DNA of 31,998 bases, from positions 1 to 31,998 of IMG/VR virus record IMGVR_UViG_3300037427_000224, one strand, 5' to 3'. This stretch comes from a virus. The position numbers were made by a program, and so were the translations under genes. Each line of letters begins with the position of its first letter. The stretch's first letter is position 1. Shown here one piece after another: positions 22,046 to 31,998 of this stretch. The notes beneath the pieces were generated by a model. That model was not told where the DNA came from. It did no database searches and saw nothing but the letters and a program-made list of their open reading frames with translations.

Positions 22046-23490
22046 TGGGTTTTTTTGATTTTTTAAAAGACGTAGGATTTGAAGCTCCAAAAGAAGAGCC
22101 ACGAAGAGGGACGCAGTTTTCAAGTACAGATGATAGGGGGAGTATAGCCACATCACCTGATGGCAGAATACTGTCAAACGTTGAAAGGGATGCTTACAAT
22201 ACAAGAGGCGACAGAAGAGTAGACAATACACCTCCACCAGACATTAACATGAGAGAGGTTGAACCTGACAGGTCAGAGCCACAATTTTTAAGTGGTATTG
22301 ACGCATTCCGTGCAGGAACATCTATGCAAGGCAGATCACCTGTTGATATTGGAATACAGCCAGATAGAAGTTATGTGCCGATGTCTATGGTCTATGGTCC
22401 AAATTCAAATCTTAAATCTTATGAGTTCAAAGGATCAGATTTGCCAATACCATCACCTGATGACCCCCTTGGTTATGATTTTCAAAATGAATCTGGTTCA
22501 ATTATGGGAACTCCAGAATATGATTTAAGAAGACAATTTCCAGTTGAGCAATTTAGAGATAATACTGCTAAAGTACCACCTCTTGGAGAGCCAAGTCAAG
22601 AGGTACAAGAACTAGCCGATGAACTAATAATAGATGCGCAAAGAGACTTTAATTTTTTAATACCTCCTGATCAAGCAATTCGTCTAGCTAAAGAAACAAT
22701 AAATAAAAGAAACGCAAATGAACTAGCAGGAACTTTTAGTCCTGATAACCGAGGCATTACAACATTAGCAGGGAGAGGTAGAAACCTTCAAAAAGGCTTT
22801 GAAGAAGCTTATGGTGTTGACGTAGCTAATGACCCTAATAAAGCAATGCAAGCAAGGTTAAATGACCCACAGTATCAGGCATTCTTAGAAACACAAGACA
22901 GTCCTATGGCAAAATATGTAAATATGTTTGGTCAAAAAGTATTAGGGTATGACGATCCATTTGAAATGTATAAAGACACACAAGCTACTGTAGCTAGAGA
23001 AAGAGGCATGGAAGGACAGAGGCAAAGAGAAGAAGACAGGGCTTCTCGTTCTAGAACACAGTCAACACCGTTAGACCCATGTGAAGCAGGATATACTTTT
23101 GACCCGTCAACACAACAATGCGTTCCAGATGAAGATGGAGAAGAAAGCAAAAACATTTTTGAAAGAAATCCACAAACAATGCAAGAATATCTTAATGAAA
23201 ACAGACCAGCAGGATTTTCTGGAAACGTTCCTTTGGGTATGTATGGAAGAGTGGGTGGCGAGTATAAGTACTTTATGAACCAAGGTGGTGGCACAGCCCC
23301 TAGAGGTGGCACAGGGGAAGTTACTGGTGCAGGAGGTCCGAAAGATGATTTGGTTGGACCGTTTATGCTTTCCAACAAAGAATACGTTTTACCTAACGAG
23401 CAAATAAAAATGTACGGTGGGGGTAATTATGAAACGGGCGTTAAAAGACTTGAACAAGACCGTTTAAAGTCATTAAGTAATTTTGCATAG
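22045..23490 (+). CDS. candidate internal virion protein 1
   Basis: The 481-residue product starts at ATG 22045 overlapping the previous stop. It is hydrophilic, with a disordered N-terminal 180 residues, then a helical region (VQELADELIIDAQRDFNFLI; KAMQARLNDPQYQAFLET) and a Cys-bearing CEAGYTFDPSTQQCVPDED segment that may form a disulfide. Its C-terminus has GPKDDLVGPFMLSNKEYVLP followed by a Lys/Glu helix. That 'GP.DD....LS..EYVLP' pattern is a common end motif in marine phage structural proteins. It sits directly before two further large helical proteins, as ejection protein genes do in short-tailed phages. Function is inferred from position. Confidence 0.55.
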   Translation: MGFFDFLKDVGFEAPKEEPRRGTQFSSTDDRGSIATSPDGRILSNVERDAYNTRGDRRVDNTPPPDINMREVEPDRSEPQFLSGIDAFRAGTSMQGRSPVDIGIQPDRSYVPMSMVYGPNSNLKSYEFKGSDLPIPSPDDPLGYDFQNESGSIMGTPEYDLRRQFPVEQFRDNTAKVPPLGEPSQEVQELADELIIDAQRDFNFLIPPDQAIRLAKETINKRNANELAGTFSPDNRGITTLAGRGRNLQKGFEEAYGVDVANDPNKAMQARLNDPQYQAFLETQDSPMAKYVNMFGQKVLGYDDPFEMYKDTQATVARERGMEGQRQREEDRASRSRTQSTPLDPCEAGYTFDPSTQQCVPDEDGEESKNIFERNPQTMQEYLNENRPAGFSGNVPLGMYGRVGGEYKYFMNQGGGTAPRGGTGEVTGAGGPKDDLVGPFMLSNKEYVLPNEQIKMYGGGNYETGVKRLEQDRLKSLSNFA

Positions 23491-26589: not shown

Positions 26590-29500
26590 ATGCAGATATA
26601 CCTAGAAGAATTCGGCAAAACAATTGGTTTTCCAGATGATTTTTCTCAAGACCAAATAAAAAACGCTATTGAGTCTAACATTATTCCTCAATTAAGGCGT
26701 GAAGAAGAAGAGAAGCGCCAAGAAGAAATACAAAAAAAACGTGATGAGGTTGGCATTTTGGGTGCTTTGCCTCGTGGGTTAAGCCGTGGTGTAACGCAAA
26801 CAGCAGGTTTAATTGGAGACGTTCTTCCAGCTATGGTTGGACAAGCTATAGGTGCAGACGAATACCGTGACAAACAAATGCAAGAGTATTTGGACAGAAT
26901 GCAAAAGATGGAAGAGGAAAGACCCTCTCTTGTTCCTTCGTACAAAGACATTGACAGCATTGGTGACGTTGCTAAATACGGACTTGAAACAGTTGGACAA
27001 TTTATACCGTCTGTTGCAACATCCATAGCTGGTGGTGGCATAGGTGGGTTTATTGGGCAGTCCGTAGCAAAAAAAGGAGCGCAGAAGCTTGCAGGCGAAG
27101 CCGCTGAAAGGTTTGCAAAGAAAGCCGTTACGACTGGTCAGATCGGGGGCGCATTTGCTGGATCAGGGATTCAGACAATACCAGAAGCTTACGCAACGCT
27201 TGAAGAGGAGACAGGCGATCCAAAACTTGGTACATCTCTTATCGTTGGTGGTGTAAACGCCGCTCTAGACAGTATACTCCCAGCGGCATTCTTGACACGG
27301 TTAGGCAAAGTAGGACGAGAAGAAGTTTCTAAAAACATTGTTGCCAAGACATTGCAGAATTTAGGCTCAACCACAGCAAAAACAAGAAAAGGTGCTATTG
27401 CAAAAGGCGCACTTAAGAGTGGCGTTGTTGAGGGTTTAACAGAAGGTACACAGGAATTTAATCAATTAACGGCAGCAAGAATTTTAGATGAAAACCCAGA
27501 GTTCTGGGAAAGTGGAGACTTTGAAAGAATTTTAGACGCTTCAATAAGAGGGGCTGTTGGTGGTAAAGCGTTTGGCGCTTTATCAGGTGCTATGTCTCAA
27601 ACAGAAGAACAAAGAACAAAGCGTGAACAAGCTATTAAAGACAACGAATTACAAACTGCTTTAGATATTATAAAAAAAGGAGTTAATGTTGAACCAATTT
27701 TACAAATAGAGCTTGGGCTAGAAACTGGAGAAAAAGGATCTCCGTTAAAATCTCCATCAACAATAATAAAAGAACTTAAACAAAACAAGGCTTTACCAAA
27801 GCCGATAGCAAATATTTTAAACAATAAATCTTTAACGCCAAAAGAAAGAATAGCAAAAGTACAAAGCCTACAAACTAAGCTAAAAGAACAGCTAAATACT
27901 GAAACAAAGTTTGACAAAGAACAAGAAAAAACAAACAAAGAGTTTAATGTAGAAGTCAATAAAAAAGAAATACGTTTAGAAGACGAAAGACCAACAGATT
28001 ATCGTGTTGTTAACAACAGGGGCAAGAGCCAAAACGTCCCACCTTTTGCTGATTTAGAAGAAGCTAAAGCTTACGTTCAAAGTCAAGAAAAGCCAGAAAA
28101 ATTAAAATTGCAAAATCAATTAGGCGATGAGGTATATTCTGGTATAGCCACAAAAGACCTTCCCCCACCCCCTCTTTCAGAAAAAGAAACTGATACAAAG
28201 ACGATACTGGAAAACAGAAAAAAGATTTTACTGGGTCAGCCTATTGGCAAGAAAGTTGTTCTGTCTTCAAAAAATGCTCAACGTTTGCTCCTGACTGGTG
28301 AATTAAAAGAGTCAAGCTACTACGAAGCGTCGGAACGGGGTGCAGGGATAGAGAAGAAGTTTGACGATGAGGTAGAGGACGTTGGTGCAGAATCTCGTGT
28401 AATATCGAAAGAAAGTACAGAATATATTAATGCTGTTGAAACTATTAACAAGAGAATAGAATCAATAGAAGAGCAAGGCGAACAAGGTAAAAAGACTGCT
28501 GTTGCTTTAAGAGAAATTTTGTCTGACAACGAAAGAACAGTTGGCGAACTGGTAACAGCCTTTGAAGTTGCTGACATAATGACGCAAATTTTGCCAGAAG
28601 CAACGGGTCATGCCGTAAAATTTGTAGATGCTATTAAAAAGGGACAATTAAATGGAACAAGAGATCCTCATGCAAAACTAATTTCTCTTGCCATGAAATC
28701 AGGACGGATAATAGACGGCAAACCACAGTTAGTTTTTGATGAAAGCATATTAAAAGAAACAGCCAGTCACGAAGCGTTCCACGTTCTTCAAGATTACTTT
28801 ATACAGTATGACCCACAAGCTAAGAAGATATTAGACCAAGAGTTTGGTGCAACAGAAAAAGTTAACAAAAAAATAGATTACAAAAACACAAAAACAGCAA
28901 AGTGGTTAAAAAGAGCAAACAGAAAACTGCACGATGATTTGTTGGCAATGAGTGCTACAAATGAAGGAATTACAGGAAGAGAAATCCAAGCTTATGCATT
29001 TAGTGCTTACAACCAAGCAAGACGGGAAGGCAAAACGCCTGTTATGGCTGGAGGGCTTGCAAGGTACTTTAGGTTTGTTTCTAACTTTTTAGAACGGTTA
29101 GGTAATTACACAAGTGGTCTTGGATTTGCAAATGCCCAAGATGTTTTTGAAGCCGTGTCATCGGGAACTGCTGCCAAGAAATTTAACAACCGTTCTTTAT
29201 CAGAACAAGATGCTGACCCGTCACAAGCTCCCGATATAGAACAATCATCACGCTCTTTGAACACAAGAGAATACTTAACATCCCAAGACGGTCAGCCATA
29301 CGCAACGGATACAAGACGTTCACAAAAGTTAATTCCGATTAATGACGGAAGCCCTATTATTGCAAAAGTGCAATTAAGGAAAAATGAAAAGAAACGAAAC
29401 GTTGTTCTTCCACAGGGAGAAAGGAAGTGGGACACAGTAAGACAGCAGTTTACAGGATACGGAGCAGACTATGTGGCTCATCCGAGTAATATAAATGAAA

Positions 29501-31998
29501 TTAGAATGAACACTCCTCATCGTGAAGTAATGCCATTTATCCAAGACGTTGTTACCAGTGGTAAAAAAGTTGAGCTTGCTGATGGTCGAGTGCAATATAA
29601 TTACAAACCCGAAAGTTATAAACAAACTGGGGTTGTTATTTTAGAAAAAGACAGAAATGAAAATTTGCAAGTTTCTCGTGCTTTTTCGGTTGATGTTAAA
29701 AAAATTAAATTAAAACGTTCTCAAGAATTAGCAAAAGAAGCTGAACAGCGAAGGTTAAGAGAAGTCCCAGAAAGGGCAACCCAAGAGGATATTGATGCCT
29801 ATAGAAGGGGCAGGGGTACTGAAGCATCTGCAAGAGGTGTTGCTGTTAACGCAGGGCAATCTGTCAGTACAAGATTCCCCACAGTTAAATCAAAAGATGG
29901 CGATCCTTTAACTGAATTTTTAAAAATTGACTCTACTTCTATTAGAGAAACTCCAGAAGCACTGGCTAAAGCATCTCGGCAAATCAAAGAATACAACATT
30001 TTACGAACTGATGAAACAAAAGGTCTTTCAGATAATCAAGTTGTAGATTTATACATTGAAAGAATGTCTGATAATTTGTTGTTTATATATGATGGCGTTC
30101 CAGAAGGCATAAGAAACAGATCAAAACTGTGGTATGTTGGGGCTAATAGAATAGCTAATAAATTTGCAGAAAAGCATGGGATTACTGTTGAACAAGCTTC
30201 TGGGATTTTAGCCGCACTCAGCCCTCAAAAAGATTGGTTTCAAAACGCATCTCTTGGTGAAAGACTTATTGATATAATGTCTACAAAACAAGACACTCAA
30301 TTTACACCAGAAATGATGAAAACTGCTAAAAGAATTTTTGGAAAAGAAAAATACAAAAAAGCACTAGACTTTATTAGCAATCCACAAAGAAACGACACAT
30401 CTTTGGGTAGTCTTGAATTGTATCACCCACACTATAAATCAATGTGGTTGAGAATATATGACGAAACTTACAATGATCGGGGTCACAGAATTGTTTCTCC
30501 AGAAGGTGAATTTTTAGATTTTACTAGGAAGAACCCAAAAAGAAATCAAAACAGAGGTGACAAAAAAGGAACTGGTTGGGGAAGTTTAACAGAAATATCA
30601 AAAGCAATTACAATTTTTGAAGACTCAAGCATTGACACTATTTCAAAAGAAATGGGTAAGATGCACAAAATAAGAAGTTTTTTTAACAATATAGTAAACC
30701 CGTTTGATACAAATGGTTCTGCTACTATTGATACTCACGCAGTAGCTGCGGCTTTTCTTCAACCTCTTGCAGGAAAATCTATTCCAGTTGGGCATAATTT
30801 TGGGGTAATGCCAATAAAAGGAGTGGAGGGATCTGCTTCAGTTGGTAAGTTTGGTACAAGAGGATATTATGGTTTAAACTATGAAGCATACAGACTGGCT
30901 GCTGAGAGAAGGGGAGTTTTGCCAAGGGAAATGCAATCCATAACATGGGAAGCAGTAAGAGGTTTGTTCCCAGCAGAATTTAAAACAGCAGAAAACGTTA
31001 AAAACATAGAAGAAATATGGAATAGATTTAAAAAAGATGATATAACATTAGATGAAGCTAGGCAGGAGGTAGTTAATTATGCCAACAAAAGAACCAAGGG
31101 AGAAGGGTTTGGTACACCAGATTGGGCAAGACCCGACACTGGAATGGATGAAATTCGAGGGGATACCACTTACGAGGAAAAACTATCTGGAGTTAGCGTA
31201 CCCAGAGGGAGTAGAGATGACACCCGAACTGGAGGAACAGTTACCAAAGGAACTACAGCTAGACCAGCAGTAGACGATGAATACGAAGCATCATCTCGTG
31301 GGGTTATGCTATCAGACGATGAATTTAGAAATGCCACATTTAAAAAAGTTGTAAAGGGCAATTTCCAAGATTCGGGATTTACTGGTAAAGGAAAGCTTTT
31401 AGCAAACAGAAATCTTACACGAGGAACGCAAGTTACACTTAGACCAAATTTAAACGGTTGGATTAAAGAAGAAGGCGCACCAATACTTACACAGACTGTA
31501 CATGACAGGTCAAAGCGAAAGTATGGAGAAGTTTTGGGTTATGACCACACTGTCGCCGCAGAAGGAAAGGTAGATCTTGACGTTAATCAAAAGGCAAGGG
31601 CGAAAATAGCATTAGGAGAAGAGAATAAATTTCCAATGGCTGGTGCTATTGGTGGTTACGCTCCATTATCTTTAGAAGAGTCTCAAAACATAATAAGTAA
31701 TCCAGATCACACGTTAAAGTTTAACCCAAGAGGGCATCATTTATTTGTCGATCAAAATGGATTTGCCGTCAAATCATACAATGGGACAGGGGTGCATCAA
31801 GGGACAAACGTTTTTGTCAAAGGTGACATAGAATACTGGAAGCAATTGGAAGCCCCTCAACAGGAAAGAGGCGTTGAAACAGATGTAAAATATTTTGATG
31901 CACCTGATTATGAAGCTTCTGCAAGAGGGTATGCTTCATCATGGGACGAAGTAATTACTTCAAAAGACGACAGCATTATAAACAACTTTTTGACTGGT
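26590..31998 (+). CDS. giant polyvalent-type internal protein (C-terminus beyond window)
   Basis: ATG 26590 (AAGG at 26577-26580) opens a frame with no stop before the window end, so at least 1803 residues. Regions: 1-50 charged helix; about 52-245 Gly/Ala-rich hydrophobic stretches (GALPRGLSRGVTQTAGLIGD, IPSVATSIAGGGIGGFIGQS) that may insert in membranes; 330-560 charged linker helices; about 700-830 a metallopeptidase-like region with HEAFH at 727-731 and a candidate third ligand E798 in EIQAYAFSAYNQ; 1175-1495 a helical domain with WYVGANRIANKFAE, ILAALSPQKDW and TIDTHA (1379-1384); 1597-1760 a beta domain with TLRPNLNGW and HHLFVDQNGFAVKS. Four EASxRG tags lie at about 579, 1078, 1566 and 1775. 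This resembles phage polyvalent proteins that are injected with the DNA. A nested gene lies in its linker at 31079-31273. Confidence 0.8.
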   Translation, partial: MQIYLEEFGKTIGFPDDFSQDQIKNAIESNIIPQLRREEEEKRQEEIQKKRDEVGILGALPRGLSRGVTQTAGLIGDVLPAMVGQAIGADEYRDKQMQEYLDRMQKMEEERPSLVPSYKDIDSIGDVAKYGLETVGQFIPSVATSIAGGGIGGFIGQSVAKKGAQKLAGEAAERFAKKAVTTGQIGGAFAGSGIQTIPEAYATLEEETGDPKLGTSLIVGGVNAALDSILPAAFLTRLGKVGREEVSKNIVAKTLQNLGSTTAKTRKGAIAKGALKSGVVEGLTEGTQEFNQLTAARILDENPEFWESGDFERILDASIRGAVGGKAFGALSGAMSQTEEQRTKREQAIKDNELQTALDIIKKGVNVEPILQIELGLETGEKGSPLKSPSTIIKELKQNKALPKPIANILNNKSLTPKERIAKVQSLQTKLKEQLNTETKFDKEQEKTNKEFNVEVNKKEIRLEDERPTDYRVVNNRGKSQNVPPFADLEEAKAYVQSQEKPEKLKLQNQLGDEVYSGIATKDLPPPPLSEKETDTKTILENRKKILLGQPIGKKVVLSSKNAQRLLLTGELKESSYYEASERGAGIEKKFDDEVEDVGAESRVISKESTEYINAVETINKRIESIEEQGEQGKKTAVALREILSDNERTVGELVTAFEVADIMTQILPEATGHAVKFVDAIKKGQLNGTRDPHAKLISLAMKSGRIIDGKPQLVFDESILKETASHEAFHVLQDYFIQYDPQAKKILDQEFGATEKVNKKIDYKNTKTAKWLKRANRKLHDDLLAMSATNEGITGREIQAYAFSAYNQARREGKTPVMAGGLARYFRFVSNFLERLGNYTSGLGFANAQDVFEAVSSGTAAKKFNNRSLSEQDADPSQAPDIEQSSRSLNTREYLTSQDGQPYATDTRRSQKLIPINDGSPIIAKVQLRKNEKKRNVVLPQGERKWDTVRQQFTGYGADYVAHPSNINEIRMNTPHREVMPFIQDVVTSGKKVELADGRVQYNYKPESYKQTGVVILEKDRNENLQVSRAFSVDVKKIKLKRSQELAKEAEQRRLREVPERATQEDIDAYRRGRGTEASARGVAVNAGQSVSTRFPTVKSKDGDPLTEFLKIDSTSIRETPEALAKASRQIKEYNILRTDETKGLSDNQVVDLYIERMSDNLLFIYDGVPEGIRNRSKLWYVGANRIANKFAEKHGITVEQASGILAALSPQKDWFQNASLGERLIDIMSTKQDTQFTPEMMKTAKRIFGKEKYKKALDFISNPQRNDTSLGSLELYHPHYKSMWLRIYDETYNDRGHRIVSPEGEFLDFTRKNPKRNQNRGDKKGTGWGSLTEISKAITIFEDSSIDTISKEMGKMHKIRSFFNNIVNPFDTNGSATIDTHAVAAAFLQPLAGKSIPVGHNFGVMPIKGVEGSASVGKFGTRGYYGLNYEAYRLAAERRGVLPREMQSITWEAVRGLFPAEFKTAENVKNIEEIWNRFKKDDITLDEARQEVVNYANKRTKGEGFGTPDWARPDTGMDEIRGDTTYEEKLSGVSVPRGSRDDTRTGGTVTKGTTARPAVDDEYEASSRGVMLSDDEFRNATFKKVVKGNFQDSGFTGKGKLLANRNLTRGTQVTLRPNLNGWIKEEGAPILTQTVHDRSKRKYGEVLGYDHTVAAEGKVDLDVNQKARAKIALGEENKFPMAGAIGGYAPLSLEESQNIISNPDHTLKFNPRGHHLFVDQNGFAVKSYNGTGVHQGTNVFVKGDIEYWKQLEAPQQERGVETDVKYFDAPDYEASARGYASSWDEVITSKDDSIINNFLTG
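31064..31070 (+). promoter_or_regulatory. perfect ribosome binding site for nested gene
   Basis: AGGAGGT lies eight bases before ATG 31079 inside the giant frame, where it encodes ordinary residues (QEVV). It is a full-length match to the anti-Shine-Dalgarno sequence, stronger than the site of almost any other gene in the window. Confidence 0.7.
31079..31273 (+). CDS. nested 64-residue gene in the +1 frame of the giant gene
   Basis: This complete gene is embedded in the giant coding region, starting at ATG 31079 behind AGGAGGT and ending at TAG 31271-31273. Its product is a soluble acidic helical protein with PTLEWMKFEGIPLTRKNYLE in the centre and TPELEEQLPKEL near the end. 'EGIPLTR.NYL.LAY......E.E..LP' is a pattern I recall from small phage proteins encoded beside large polyvalent genes. 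By hand count this stretch is about 49% GC (95 of 195), against about 27-38% in 60-base blocks on each side. In the giant frame the same bases encode a Gly/Thr/Arg-rich linker. Dual coding is likely; function is unknown. Confidence 0.7.
   Translation: MPTKEPREKGLVHQIGQDPTLEWMKFEGIPLTRKNYLELAYPEGVEMTPELEEQLPKELQLDQQ

What the first reader, a model, noticed from the sequence alone, without database searches (positions are those of the whole stretch)
31064..31273. Overprinted gene nested in the giant polyvalent gene
A complete 64-codon frame lies in +1 within the giant gene, with AGGAGGT eight bases before its ATG. Its product has a family-like sequence (GIPLTRKNYLELAY, TPELEEQLP) rather than a random look. 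GC rises to about 49% (95 of 195, hand-counted) against 20/60, 16/60, 19/60 and 23/60 in neighbouring lines. The giant frame here is an unstructured Gly/Thr/Arg-rich linker between a helical domain and an EASSRG tag, so the linker seems free to host another protein. Both frames continue intact, so a simple frameshift does not explain it.
Basis: partly seen in the sequence, partly recalled or inferred. Interest (0 to 1): 0.85.

Follow-up and report, generated by a model that had tools for sequence, protein, structure and literature searches.

The report
Hidden partner gene inside phage effector
A small, previously unannotated phage gene is read in a shifted frame inside a giant effector gene, and its relatives almost always sit directly behind the same effector domain (DUF7178), so it is a real, conserved partner gene that none of the family databases we searched contains.

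Summary
In detail: a 64-codon +1 ORF (31079-31273) with AGGAGGT 8 nt upstream lies inside the giant gene. Its length alone is unremarkable (65% of synonymous shuffles give one as long); comparative evidence decides. The peptide belongs to a family of about 120 distinct proteins, absent from Pfam, PHROGs, NCBIfam and PADLOC, encoded directly behind a DUF7178 domain. Searching with that domain alone, 76 of 79 viral and 15 of 21 genome loci carry the small ORF, mostly nested in +1. Host-frame four-fold sites diverge 5.6% in the overlap versus 35.8% upstream and 37.8% downstream (34 of 34 pairs). The small frame is the better conserved in 98.7% of pairs; 92% of nested starts have a Shine-Dalgarno (control 12.6%). 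Separate, overlapping and nested forms occur in one family. AlphaFold confidence suggests that the small protein docks on DUF7178. Likeliest function: dedicated inhibitor or chaperone of an injected effector domain. The gene is near certain; its function is inferred.

The parts
31079..31273 (+). Nested small gene, 64 aa, acidic (pI about 4.6); dedicated partner of the upstream DUF7178 domain
31064..31070 (+). Shine-Dalgarno AGGAGGT of the nested gene, 8 nt before the ATG, inside the giant's coding sequence
   Evidence: SD of 4 nt or more in 92% of nested homologues versus 12.6% of control ATGs
29845..31134 (+). DUF7178 (PF23802) domain region of the giant protein, the near-obligate neighbour of the small gene; all-helical AlphaFold model, pLDDT 96
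26590..31998 (+). Giant polyvalent protein gene (1803 codons, runs off the window end; in the near-identical locus L002 it is 2677 aa and ends with LPD38)
   Evidence: HEAFH zincin-like motif at residue 727
29875..31213 (+). Exchanged cassette: 66% identical to L002, while flanks are 98-99% identical; carries DUF7178 and the 5' two thirds of the nested gene
31279..31302 (+). EASSRG tag following the overlap, one of five EASxRG-like tags between domains of the giant protein

Best explanation
The 64-aa ORF is a real, independently initiated gene, nested in +1 inside a phage polyvalent-effector gene. It encodes the dedicated partner of the DUF7178 domain directly upstream. Shown: conserved family, near-obligate linkage to DUF7178, own ribosome-binding site, purifying selection on the small frame, and separate, overlapping and nested architectures in one family. 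Predicted by AlphaFold confidence only: the small protein folds and docks on the DUF7178 domain. Inferred: ribosomes initiating inside the giant message make the free small protein alongside the giant; it binds the DUF7178 module and keeps it inactive or assembly-competent in the producing cell, and is left behind when the polyvalent protein is packaged and injected. Inferred origin: a downstream partner gene was repeatedly read through when the DUF7178 frame lost its stop and fused to further polyvalent domains. My split for function, given a real partner gene: inhibitor or antidote about 45%, folding or packaging chaperone about 30%, enzyme subunit about 20%, other 5%.
For: Homologues were found by the small peptide alone, and 39 of the first 40 loci have DUF7178 just upstream, the other being cut off at the contig end. 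The reverse search by domain alone finds the small ORF in 76 of 79 viral and 15 of 21 genome loci. Host-frame four-fold divergence is 55/981 in the overlap versus 1714/4787 in DUF7178 and 188/498 downstream, 34/34 pairs, Fisher p about 1e-97 and 2e-53. The small frame is better conserved than the host frame in 98.7% of pairs, and an SD is present in 92% versus 12.6% of controls. The window cassette was exchanged between otherwise 98-99% identical giants while the small ORF stayed intact. Joint fold pTM is 0.88, against about 0.78-0.80 expected if the small domain were unplaced; small-domain pLDDT about 85-95. The giant is a polyvalent protein: LPD38 in L002 and L003, HEAFH motif, and a DNA-ejection-protein-like gene two genes upstream.
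Against: No expression data. DUF7178 occurs without the small ORF in 8 distinct loci, so it is not absolutely required. The small protein is more conserved than I would expect of an immunity protein, which argues for chaperone or subunit as much as antidote. No activity of DUF7178 is known: Foldseek finds no solved structure at E <= 0.001. The joint fold used an artificial stop read-through and artificially frame-shifted rows to present both chains, with few truly paired rows; no PAE or coordinates were available.
Confidence: 0.8

Rival explanations
1. Programmed +1 frameshifting makes a DUF7178-small fusion; there is no separate small protein.
For: All 100 distinct fully nested loci share the same +1 relation, and the two products are adjacent.
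Against: An initiating Met is conserved in 94% of aligned members. SD in 92% of nested starts versus 12.6% of controls. Loci in +2 or in the same frame with stop codons in between (L035, L131, L135, L141) cannot use a +1 shift.
Confidence: 0.04
2. The small protein is an obligate enzyme subunit or activator of DUF7178 rather than an inhibitor or chaperone.
For: High conservation of the LTRENYL..AYPEG core; near-obligate pairing in all contexts; predicted docking.
Against: DUF7178 persists without it in 8 distinct loci; if the giant is injected with the virion, a free subunit would have to be co-packaged.
Confidence: 0.2
3. Chance ORF, with peptide conservation a by-product of constraint on the giant frame.
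For: ORF length is not unusual.
Against: The host frame is less conserved than the small frame in 98.7% of pairs; homologues exist where the host frame stops before or inside the small ORF; synonymous host sites are frozen.
Confidence: 0.01
4. A sequencing or assembly frameshift split one gene.
For: None found.
Against: Both frames stay open, and the same arrangement recurs in about 100 distinct loci, including isolate genomes (Bradyrhizobium L132-L134, Jannaschia L123).
Confidence: 0.005

Closest known systems
Lambda Rz/Rz1 two-component spanins (embedded architecture)
   Same: A small partner gene nested in +1 in a larger partner gene, often missed by gene callers; embedded, overlapped and separated forms exist (PMC6139136).
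   Different: Rz1 is an outer-membrane lipoprotein acting in lysis. The small protein here is acidic, shows no relation to spanins and pairs with a domain of a polyvalent protein. PMC6139136 reports no spanin family mixing embedded with the other architectures; this family does.
Polyvalent proteins of phages and conjugative elements (Iyer et al. 2017, PMC5512222)
   Same: The host gene fits: multidomain, HExxH motif, LPD38, GNAT in L003, in the virion gene block.
   Different: A text search of that paper finds no 'overlap' and no 'immunity protein'; no nested gene is described.
Polymorphic toxin-immunity cassettes and type II toxin-antitoxin pairs
   Same: An effector-like module with a small acidic partner encoded directly downstream, moving as a cassette.
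   Different: No toxicity shown; partner strongly conserved; partner gene lies inside the effector gene's own coding sequence.
DUF7178 (PF23802) / phrog_3842
   Same: The upstream domain matches this family (E 7e-28).
   Different: Family of unknown function; the partner is not represented in Pfam, PHROGs, NCBIfam or PADLOC.

Membership tests
Overprinted (nested) protein-coding gene | Complete ORF in another frame of a longer gene | tested here: met
Overprinted (nested) protein-coding gene | Homologues with the frame kept open | tested here: met
Overprinted (nested) protein-coding gene | Suppressed synonymous change of the host frame in the overlap | tested here: met
   5.6% versus 35.8% and 37.8%
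Overprinted (nested) protein-coding gene | Translated product observed | not testable with these tools
   needs ribosome profiling or mass spectrometry
Polyvalent protein (host gene) | Several disparate domains in one polypeptide, including known polyvalent-associated domains | tested here: met
   DUF7178 plus LPD38 in the near-identical giant L002, GNAT in L003; LPD38 itself lies beyond the window end
Polyvalent protein (host gene) | Zincin-like HExxH motif (common, not universal) | tested here: met
   HEAFH at residue 727 of the giant; motif only, no Pfam peptidase hit
Polyvalent protein (host gene) | Packaged and injected with the DNA | not testable with these tools
   inferred from position next to virion and DNA-ejection-protein-like genes
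HhH-GPD DNA glycosylase (considered for DUF7178 because actinophage homologues are annotated so) | Structural match to solved glycosylases | tested here: not met
   no Foldseek PDB match at E <= 0.001; no PDB sequence match
Toxin-antitoxin or effector-immunity pair | Partner encoded immediately downstream and linked | tested here: met
Toxin-antitoxin or effector-immunity pair | Partner neutralises a toxic activity | not testable with these tools
   no activity known
Spanin o-component (Rz1-like) | Lipoprotein signal and a transmembrane i-spanin partner | tested here: not met
   by inspection, the sequence has no lipobox or hydrophobic signal

The most novel reading that the evidence does not exclude
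Phage polyvalent effectors carry hidden, nested antidote genes: the neutraliser of an injected effector domain is encoded out of frame inside the effector's own coding sequence, so that any transfer of the domain also transfers its antidote.
Probability: 0.35. Interest if true: 0.9.

Novelty: new variant of a known kind. Interest (0 to 1): 0.78.

Why it matters
It adds a sizeable protein family, invisible to the databases searched, to phage biology, and shows that polyvalent effector genes can hide conserved partner genes. One family contains separate, overlapping and fully nested forms, so the stop-loss route to embedded genes, proposed for spanins but without a mixed family there (PMC6139136), can be traced directly. 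The partner also gives a practical handle on DUF7178, an unknown domain with no detectable solved relative.

Tried and rejected
HhH-GPD glycosylase for DUF7178: suggested by a DTHA motif and by actinophage annotations, not supported by Foldseek or PDB sequence search. Searches of phage and plasmid records with the small peptide found nothing. Of the three best DUF7178 hits among phage records, one (L220) keeps only a weak nested match and two (L219, L221) none. A first joint-fold alignment misplaced the small rows; a second used a four-letter reading that the tool does not admit, and the one that the tool named was used instead. ORF length and GC as evidence: length is not significant, GC is mildly unusual. 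Programmed frameshifting was rejected on conserved starts, SDs and pairs in other frames. The docking site is unknown because no PAE or coordinates were returned. One phylum search and one literature search failed on syntax or scope.

Full report
Observation. The giant frame (26590-31998, open at the window end) contains a complete +1 ORF at 31079-31273 with AGGAGGT at 31064-31070, 8 nt before the ATG. ORF length is not evidence: 65% of synonymous recodings of the giant contain an alternative-frame ORF at least as long.

Homologues. The peptide alone finds relatives in IMG/VR, although none of Pfam, PHROGs, NCBIfam or PADLOC holds the family and tblastn finds none in 50,697 phage or 72,556 plasmid records. 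Every locus of the first set with enough upstream sequence has a DUF7178-type domain just upstream. The reverse, unbiased test starts from the DUF7178 domain: 76 of 79 viral loci and 15 of 21 GTDB genome loci carry the small ORF just downstream; the viral set is the 80 best matches to the domain, so it favours relatives close to the window. After removing duplicates over all searches there are 100 nested +1, 21 partly overlapping +1, 2 partly overlapping +2, 4 separate, 2 same-frame separate and 8 without the small ORF (this pooled set includes loci found by the small ORF, so the unbiased ratio is that). 'Nested' means that the host frame runs past the small stop: in 60 of 104 loci by 100 codons or more, in 44 by fewer than 30.

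Selection. In 34 non-overlapping pairs of nested loci, four-fold degenerate sites of the host frame differ at 55/981 in the overlap, 1714/4787 in the DUF7178 domain and 188/498 downstream; all 34 pairs point the same way. The small frame is more conserved than the host frame over the same nucleotides in 98.7% of about 700 sampled pairs (sampled pairs are not independent). Starts chosen without looking at the SD have an SD of 4 nt or more in 92% of 102 nested loci, versus 12.6% of 7363 control ATGs in the same phase. For the window itself, third positions of the giant frame differ from L005 at 10/64 in the overlap versus 143/315 upstream. These results make a coding function near certain.

Direction of overprinting. 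The small gene occurs without being covered by the DUF7178 frame (L004, L025, L036, L038, L035, L135), with the host stop inside it (L023) or just after it (L033, L039), and fully nested in giants. On the DUF7178 tree the long-nested state needs 12 changes, at least 6 forced by well-supported branches. The root is not known, so the direction (separate to nested) is inferred, supported by the lower conservation of the giant frame in the overlap. The spanin survey (PMC6139136) proposes stop loss as one route to embedded genes and reports no family with mixed architectures; this family has them.

Mosaic. Window and L002 giants are 98.1% and 98.9% identical on either side but 66% identical from about 29,875 to about 31,213. 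The exchanged block holds DUF7178 and the 5' two thirds of the small ORF; the 3' breakpoint lies inside the small ORF and leaves it intact.

Host protein. The giant has an HEAFH motif (residue 727) and five EASxRG-like tags between domains. The near-identical L002 giant continues to LPD38, and L003 also has a GNAT domain. It follows structural genes, one of which resembles a DNA ejection protein. This fits the polyvalent proteins of PMC5512222, which are predicted to be injected with the DNA; injection was not tested here.

Structure. DUF7178 of the window folds confidently as an all-helical domain (pLDDT 96, pTM 0.93) with no solved relative at E <= 0.001 and with relatives among viral polyvalent proteins. 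To ask about binding, a locus with DUF7178 and the small gene in the same frame (L035) was read through its two stops, purely as a device to present both chains, and folded with unpaired and a few paired rows. pTM was 0.88; if only the DUF7178 part were placed, about 0.78-0.80 would be expected, so most of the small domain appears to be placed with confidence. This is indirect: no PAE or coordinates were returned, and covalent linkage may favour contact.

Function. Near-obligate pairing, acidity (median pI 4.45), cassette exchange and predicted docking fit a dedicated inhibitor (antidote) or chaperone of an injected effector domain. Strong conservation of the PLTRENYL..AYPEG core and persistence of DUF7178 without it in a few lineages leave a subunit or chaperone role open. 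No experiment here separates these.

Noticed in passing
window giant protein residues 577, 882, 1076, 1564, 1773 (within 26590-31998): Five EASxRG-like tags (EASERG, EQSSRS, EASARG, EASSRG, EASARG) separate the domains of the giant; they look like processing sites, possibly for its own HEAFH metallopeptidase.
   Followed up: partly
window 29875-31213 versus L002: Sharp mosaic boundaries: DUF7178 and most of the nested ORF were exchanged between otherwise nearly identical giant genes.
   Followed up: yes
window 29845-31134: DUF7178 has a very confident all-helical model but no match among solved structures, with invariant SPQ..W..N and T.DTHA motifs that suggest an enzyme of an unsolved fold.
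   Followed up: partly
L056, L060, L127, L130, L136, L137: DUF7178 loci that lack the small ORF; L056 and L060 group together next to the window's clade and appear to have lost it.
   Followed up: partly
window 23331-23347: A second AGGAGGT-N-ATG in +1 inside the 481-aa gene, but its frame is only 20 codons long; probably chance.
   Followed up: yes
L220 (OP947163.1) from about 6964: The phage record LS06-2018-MD07 keeps a weak match to the small family (E 0.004) in +1 of its giant gene, annotated 'methyltransferase'; the small frame is not annotated.
   Followed up: partly
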